NCBI GenBank assembly: GCA_903877125.1
Contig: CAIRCM010000096.1
Span: 1-37,419, forward strand
Origin: an uncultured Acetobacteraceae bacterium
GTDB lineage: Bacteria; Pseudomonadota; Alphaproteobacteria; Acetobacterales; Acetobacteraceae
DNA length: 37,419 nt
Direction of reading: 5' to 3'
In this document: positions 1 to 463 of the stretch, one piece after another
Numbering within the stretch: the stretch's first letter is position 1
Layout: each line of letters begins with the position of its first letter
Program-made: the position numbers and the translations under genes
Notes under the pieces: model-generated
Databases searched by the model: none
Told to the model about the DNA's origin: nothing
What the model saw: only the letters and a program-made list of their open reading frames with translations

Positions 1-175
1 GTTTGGGTCACTTGGTGTGCCCAGGCTGCGTCATTGCAGACGGGAAGGCGACCTGTCGTGAGCCTAACATGAAGCCAGTCGGAAAGCCGGATGCGGGAAA
101 CCCGCACGTCCGGTTTGATGAGCGGGGGAGGGAAACGGGTTGCCTTGGCAATACCGCGCCCTTCCTCGACTCTAC
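1..175 (+). mobile_element. Group II intron, 3' end (window starts inside it)
   Basis: This is the terminal part of a bacterial group II intron; the ribozyme 5' domains and any intron-encoded reverse transcriptase lie outside the window. Positions 1-83 look like the end of domain IV, the linker that follows the maturase ORF. Positions 84-116 fold as domain V and 124-175 as domain VI (described separately). The proposed intron end is C175, giving the usual AC 3' terminus, seven nucleotides from a bulged A169 that fits the lariat branch point. The next base begins an in-frame Crp/Fnr-type coding segment. The short reading frames across 1-175 are not genes. Identification rests on structure and on remembered similarity of the DV sequence to alphaproteobacterial introns; the exact 3' splice site is an inference. 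Confidence 0.8.
84..175 (+). ncRNA. Group II intron domains V and VI
   Basis: Domain V (84-116): lower stem AAGCCGGA (84-91) pairs with TCCGGTTT (109-116) through one G-U pair and carries the AGC catalytic triad at 85-87. A two-base CG bulge follows at 107-108. The upper stem TGCGG/CCGCA is capped by a GAAA-type loop at about 97-101, one base shorter than the textbook form. Domain VI: GGGGGAGGG (124-132) pairs with CCCTTCCTC (159-167) including two G-U pairs. Inner stems are CGG/CCG and TTGCC/GGCAA with a TT loop. A169 is unpaired on the 3' side, as expected for a branch-point adenosine. The pairing is read directly from the sequence. Confidence 0.8.
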
Positions 176-463
176 CGCAATACCAGCGAAACGCTGTCCG
201 ATTTCGTGATGTTCGACCTGCCCGTGCGTCTGGGCCGCACCCTGATCAAGCTCGCCCGCGATTACGGGACAACGGTCGGCACCGCGGTGCGGATCGGCAT
301 GAAATTGTCGCAGAATGACCTCAGCCGGCTGGTTGCCGCGACCCGCGAAAGTGTCAACAAGCAGATGCGTGTGTGGGAGGACGAAGACCTCGTGCTCAAG
401 CAGGGCGGCCTGCTGATCATCAAAAACCTGGACGAGCTGAAGCGCCAAAGCGGTCTGAGTTGA
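176..463 (+). pseudogene. Crp/Fnr-type regulator, C-terminal part, split by the intron
   Basis: The 95 residues from 176 read as the end of a Crp/Fnr-family transcription factor. RNTSETLSDFVMFDLPVRLG matches the end of the dimerisation helix and the start of the DNA-binding domain. A winged helix-turn-helix follows, with KLSQNDLSRLVAATRESVNK as the recognition helix region, and the protein ends with a typical basic wing. The cyclic-nucleotide-binding beta-roll that should precede it is absent, because the intron lies immediately upstream in the same reading frame. A TTG at 140 could start a 107-aa frame, but its first 12 codons are intron domain VI, so I do not take it as a real start. If the intron splices, the gene may still work; without splicing it is broken. 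The N-terminal exon should lie beyond the left edge. Confidence 0.75.

What the first reader, a model, noticed from the sequence alone, without database searches (positions are those of the whole stretch)
1..463. Group II intron inserted in frame inside a crp/fnr-type gene
Domains V and VI can be folded by hand, with a bulged A169 seven bases from the likely 3' end (C175). The next codons, in the same frame, continue a Crp/Fnr protein exactly at the junction of the dimerisation helix and the DNA-binding domain. Many bacterial group II introns sit outside genes; one inside a regulator would either inactivate it or make its expression depend on splicing.
Basis: partly seen in the sequence, partly recalled or inferred. 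Interest (0 to 1): 0.7.

Follow-up and report, generated by a model that had tools for sequence, protein, structure and literature searches.

The report
Group II intron splitting crp gene
The window begins inside a mobile self-splicing intron that sits, without disturbing the reading frame, in a gene-regulator gene of a bacterium probably of the acetic-acid family; about 18 copies of the intron are in that genome, at least four of them inside genes, which should work only if the intron is spliced out.

Summary
Confirmed. Window 1-175 is the 3' end of a group II intron: the last codons of its reverse transcriptase/maturase ORF (2-61), domain V (Rfam RF00029, 48.9 bits) and domain VI with bulged A169. 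Codons 176-460 are the C-terminal half of a Crp/Fnr protein. The other half ends contig C177 of the same assembly: ...LLTVLCERL, then the intron 5' end GTGCG. Joined exons form a 240-codon open frame that aligns across the junction to uninterrupted genes in six same-genus genomes, so the insertion was exact. The assembly holds 18 intron 5' ends and 18 3' ends, nearly identical; the interior (about 1.5 kb) is not assembled. Four copies lie inside genes (crp, sugar transferase, MFS transporter, CoA ligase), all sense and frame-preserving; the other 14 appear intergenic. The sites share an IBS2-IBS1-like target; the crp site fits only with one extra base at -5, which could weaken splicing. Best reading: a recent retrohoming burst, with crp expressed through splicing. 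Splicing itself is untested. Group II introns inside bacterial genes are a known kind; a conserved regulator as host, and four genic sense insertions, are uncommon.

The parts
2..61 (+). last 19 codons and stop of the intron-encoded protein (RT/maturase)
   Evidence: frame 2 reads FGSLGVPRLRHCRREGDLS*; cf. ...VFGDLGVPRLRNLRRKGALSS at the end of the complete protein of relative G027; the copy on C122 shows 45 codons of it
82..116 (+). intron domain V
   Evidence: RF00029 match 82-175; fold
120..175 (+). intron domain VI and 3' end (...AC)
   Evidence: fold with helix 120-131/160-172; 18 copies diverge after 175
169..169 (+). bulged A, presumed branch point
   Evidence: unpaired between pairs 168-123 and 170-122
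176..463 (+). second exon of a crp/fnr-type gene (95 codons plus stop)
   Evidence: HTH_Crp_2; joined protein has cNMP_binding 43-126 and HTH_Crp_2 163-235. First exon lies outside the window at the end of contig G000:C177

Best explanation
A mobile group II intron that encodes its own RT/maturase has multiplied to about 18 near-identical copies in this genome by retrohoming into sites like CTCBGCGNGCTCTG|CG. One copy went in the sense direction into a Crp/Fnr regulator gene, exactly between the codons for ...CERL and RNTSE..., adding and removing nothing. Shown: both intron ends, exact junction, restored frame, empty sites in relatives, intact DV/DVI in this copy. Inferred: the unassembled interior is complete; the intron is spliced out with protein supplied by this or any other copy; the ligated mRNA makes full-length Crp/Fnr protein. 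Unspliced message would give the cNMP-binding domain plus 28 intron-coded residues and a stop.
For: RF00029 and bulged A. Exon 1 plus GTGCG on C177. Joined 240-codon frame with both Crp/Fnr domains. Gap-free alignment over the junction in 6 of 6 close relatives examined, and the same order hydrolase-exon 1-exon 2 in all six. 18 5' and 18 3' ends. Three further genic sense copies that also restore frames, with uninterrupted homologues. Window positions 67-175 are identical in 17 of 17 copies that cover them. No second close copy of this gene: 1 match to exon 2 in the own genome.
Against: No RNA evidence. The interior (about nt 182-1669 of the 1,922-nt relative) and so EBS1 and most of the RT ORF are missing from the assembly. 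The crp site is the worst of 18 in the ungapped target score (-11.2, next 4.2), through one extra base at -5. C177 and C96 are joined by inference only; the gene after exon 2 in the window was not found within the 1.5 kb downstream fetched in the six relatives. Four of four sense insertions is a small number.
Confidence: 0.62

Rival explanations
1. The intron is there but does not splice usefully at this site; crp is a recent loss-of-function allele that makes a truncated cNMP-binding protein.
For: Only site of 18 without C at -5; the target match needs a one-base bulge inside the presumed IBS1. [quoted passage not shown] In T. elongatus poorly matched introns sit mostly in intergenic regions (PMC2882425, passage).
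Against: Both exons are free of stops and frameshifts, though a recent insertion would leave them so anyway. The intron got in at this site, so its RNA can pair there well enough for reverse splicing (inference). This copy may have its own EBS1, which cannot be read.
Confidence: 0.28
2. The two halves are now in different places, separated by recombination between intron copies, and crp is dead or needs trans-splicing.
For: Contigs break at every copy, so adjacency is not shown for any pair; 18 near-identical copies are substrates for recombination; no downstream synteny with relatives found.
Against: Nothing positive; simple cis insertion explains the data.
Confidence: 0.05
3. Assembly artefact: an unrelated intron end joined to a crp fragment.
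For: Draft assembly of 231 contigs that breaks at repeats.
Against: Exon 1 independently ends in the intron 5' end at exactly the complementary codon. The window copy has a private base, A51, where 13 of 13 other uninterrupted copies covering it have T, so it is a resolved copy.
Confidence: 0.02

Closest known systems
Group II introns of Thermosynechococcus elongatus (PMC2882425; passages read)
   Same: Many copies of related mobile group II introns in one bacterial genome, mostly intergenic, a few in genes (one in a glycosyl transferase gene), insertion by retrohoming at IBS-like sites.
   Different: There several diverged families, many ORF-less; here one near-identical family whose visible copies carry the end of the RT ORF, with four of 18 in genes, one a Crp/Fnr regulator.
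Ll.LtrB of Lactococcus lactis (PMC6003770; passages read)
   Same: Group II intron inside a protein gene whose expression needs splicing.
   Different: Host gene there is a relaxase on a conjugative plasmid; here a regulator gene next to ordinary metabolic genes.
RmInt1, class D, of Sinorhizobium meliloti (PMC5894124; passages read)
   Same: Alphaproteobacterial, multi-copy (10 in strain GR4), intron protein without endonuclease domain.
   Different: Same IEP class not tested; target here is not shown to be an insertion sequence.

Membership tests
Group II intron | domain V | tested here: met
   RF00029 48.9 bits, model positions 1-77 of 77
Group II intron | domain VI with bulged A 7-8 nt from the 3' end | tested here: met
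   A169, 3' end C175
Group II intron | 5' end GUGYG and 3' end AY | tested here: met
   GTGCG on C177 and 18 of 18 5' ends; AC at 174-175. The consensus itself is recalled
Group II intron | encodes RT with maturase domain | tested here: inconclusive
   Own copies show only the protein's C-terminus. Complete relatives L137 and L145: TIGR04416 at 338.3 and 337.3 bits (cut-off 300), RVT_1 and GIIM
Group II intron | EBS1-IBS1 pairing | tested here: inconclusive
   Own EBS1 not assembled. In 4 relatives a stretch near intron nt 215 is complementary to IBS1 over 5 of 5 bases in three and 4 of 5 in one
Group II intron | exact insertion without target duplication | tested here: met
   crp: 6 of 6 relatives with no indel at the junction
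Group II intron | splicing in the cell | not testable with these tools
   no RNA data
Group IIB, IEP class D, E or F | IEP clade and ribozyme subclass | not tested
   Only absence of an endonuclease domain in Pfam hits of two relatives and an IBS2-like block in the target were seen; no tree was built
Crp/Fnr regulators | cNMP-binding domain followed by Crp-type HTH | tested here: met
   PF00027 at 43-126, PF13545 at 163-235 of the joined protein

The most novel reading that the evidence does not exclude
Expression of a Crp/Fnr regulator is limited by splicing at a target with a one-base bulge, so that the amount of shared intron protein, and with it the intron load of the genome (about 18 copies), sets the level of a transcription factor and of a sugar transferase, a transporter and a CoA ligase: a post-transcriptional regulon tied to a retroelement.
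Probability: 0.06. Interest if true: 0.75.

Novelty: new member of a known kind. Interest (0 to 1): 0.43.

Why it matters
Most bacterial group II introns lie outside housekeeping genes (PMC4424553 and PMC6003770, passages). A genome with about 18 near-identical copies, four inside genes in splicing orientation and one of them in a regulator at a bulged target, is a natural test of how well such introns must splice to be tolerated, which bears on how introns came to settle in genes. The genic sites can be tested directly in a splicing assay.

Tried and rejected
A complete intron could not be read in the own genome: a search with the 1,922-nt intron of relative G027 gave 36 matches, 18 5' and 18 3' pieces, and none from the interior. 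The only RVT_1 match in the own genome (C39, 54.3 bits) is not the intron protein; it lies beside two 113-base repeats that differ at 14 positions, all 14 an A in one of them, the mark of a diversity-generating retroelement.

More genic copies: all 31 ORFs of 100 aa or more that touch (within 2 bases) one of the other 28 junction ends in the listing, plus one 6 bases away, were scanned with Pfam (32 in all: 10, 10, 10, 2). One had a match: a TauD gene antisense to the intron, its domain starting at residue 36 from the junction. Shorter ORFs were not scanned, and the 14 other 5' ends were not paired with 3' ends, so 'intergenic' for these is the likely reading, not a proof.

Target as an abundant repeat: CTCTGCGNNCTCTGCG with up to 1 mismatch has 4 places in the own genome, the reversed control 5: not supported, although several 5' flanks resemble each other.

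Print: 'group II intron' with 'Acetobacteraceae' gave 1 unrelated paper, with 'crp fnr' none, with 'transcriptional regulator gene' 1 toolkit paper, with 'cyclic AMP receptor protein' and two more terms 183 papers holding at least 3 of 4 terms, of which the 10 listed had no occurrence of that name. The library lacks most subscription papers, so this shows little.

Not done: IEP class by a tree; structure prediction; the last genome search.

Full report
What the window shows. Positions 82-175 match Rfam RF00029 over the full model at 48.9 bits. The strand folds far better than its shuffles (z -5.61, 0 of 200 as good), and the basal DVI helix has A169 as its one bulge. Positions 2-61 encode FGSLGVPRLRHCRREGDLS and a stop, the end of an intron-encoded protein. 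From 176 the frame runs to the stop at 461-463 and is a Crp-type HTH.

The missing half. The window is the whole of contig C96 in a 231-contig, 5.15-Mb assembly. Of six cNMP-binding domains in that assembly one lies near the end of C177. There the frame ends ...LALRLLTVLCERL and is followed by GTGCGTCCCGAAGGACGCG..., a group II 5' end. Joining C177 and C96 gives a 240-codon open frame with the junction after codon 145, carrying PF00027 and PF13545. Six of the 32 other same-genus genomes searched have this gene uninterrupted at 68-79% identity over the C-terminal half; others have matches at lower identity or none. All six align across the junction with no indel there, four with no gap in 394-400 nt and two with 8 gap positions elsewhere. 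The hydrolase gene upstream, exon 1 and exon 2 are contiguous in all six; the periplasmic binding-protein gene that follows exon 2 in the window was not found within the 1.5 kb fetched downstream in them, so adjacency of C177 and C96 rests on the gene itself and not on downstream synteny.

Copies. The assembly holds 18 intron 3' ends and 18 5' ends; a complete 1,922-nt intron of a relative finds these 36 pieces and no interior. The contigs end inside the intron at 17 of the 18 3' copies. The copy on C67 is interrupted 112 nt from its 3' end by another sequence; a similar sequence lies at the broken sugar-transferase gene of genome G009, probably an insertion sequence. Positions 67-175 are identical in 17 of 17 copies that cover them and the eighteenth (C43) is identical over its 55 bases; the C122 copy differs at 66. 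The window copy alone has A at 51, where 13 of 13 other uninterrupted copies covering it have T.

Genic copies. Besides crp, three exon pairs join to long open frames: C201 with C196 (481 codons, sugar transferase PF02397), C173 with C163 (463 codons, MFS), C101 with C99 (767 codons; CoA-binding, Succ_CoA_lig and ATP-grasp). Uninterrupted homologues span each junction: 73-76% in G028, G003 and G001; 75-82% at eight places in seven genomes; 87-91% in G009, G001 and G011. Around these junctions the DNA aligns with no or small gaps. All four copies are in sense orientation. Scans of 32 ORFs at the other junction ends gave one Pfam match, a TauD gene antisense to the intron that probably starts beyond the junction. 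The other 14 copies are taken as intergenic, with the limits told under Tried and rejected.

Target. Over 18 sites T at -4, C at -3 and G at -1 are invariant; C at -5 in 17 (crp has G); T at -2 in 16; C at +1 in 16 and T in 2, both able to pair with a G; G at +2 in 17; and a second block near -14 to -8 (CTCBGCG). The crp site has the lowest leave-one-out score (-11.2 over 16 positions; next 4.2). Leaving out its base at -5 raises a 14-position score from -10.6 to 18.5, which no position on either strand of the window reaches even with a bulge allowed (0 of 74,790). The bulge position was chosen after seeing the site. The codons CGN CTG are also in the relatives, so the extra base was there before the intron. 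In four complete relatives a stretch near intron nt 215 is complementary to their IBS1 (five of five bases in three, four of five in G027, which reads CAGAG, what the present target would need). Own copies are readable only to about nt 180 from the 5' side.

Family. Two complete relatives code 439-440-aa proteins that pass TIGR04416 and carry RVT_1 and GIIM. The DV sequence is found in 53 stretches of named genomes, among them Alphaproteobacteria, Terriglobia and Bryobacterales, Opitutaceae and Nitrospinota bins, so the family is widespread.

Mechanism. Shown: exact insertion, both ends, intact DV and DVI, restored frames. Inferred: splicing with protein from any copy and a full-length Crp/Fnr made from ligated mRNA. 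Unspliced crp message would end after 28 intron-coded residues. From papers, passages only: most bacterial group II introns lie outside housekeeping genes (PMC4424553; PMC6003770), and in T. elongatus the poorly matched ones are mostly intergenic (PMC2882425). The crp copy departs from that trend, which is why weak or regulated splicing is worth testing.

Noticed in passing
L026 651-763 and 2370-2482 (G000:C39): Own genome holds a diversity-generating retroelement: RT gene with two 113-base repeats differing at 14 positions, all an A in the template copy, the variable copy at the 3' end of a formylglycine-enzyme-like gene (family name recalled).
   Followed up: partly
L133 (G000:C67 end); L236 and L237 (G009:C197, C263 ends): A sequence ending TGCTATGCGGTGAATAAGA-G/T-GGGCTA interrupts one intron copy and a similar one lies at the broken sugar-transferase gene of G009; probably an insertion sequence.
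   Followed up: partly
L123, L127, L131 (3' flanks): Three insertions without a gene at the junction share a stretch like GCGCCCAAATGCCG about 16-31 bases after the junction.
   Followed up: no
L150, L171, L184, L193 (3' flanks): Relatives of the intron in Acidiphilium, Belnapia, Gluconacetobacter and a Rhodospirillales MAG sit before similar coding sequence (IKGRKRHI...-like), which looks like a transposase (recalled), so one branch may home into an insertion sequence.
   Followed up: no
L105 140-1078: TauD-family gene reads away from an intron copy in antisense, its domain starting 36 residues from the junction.
   Followed up: no
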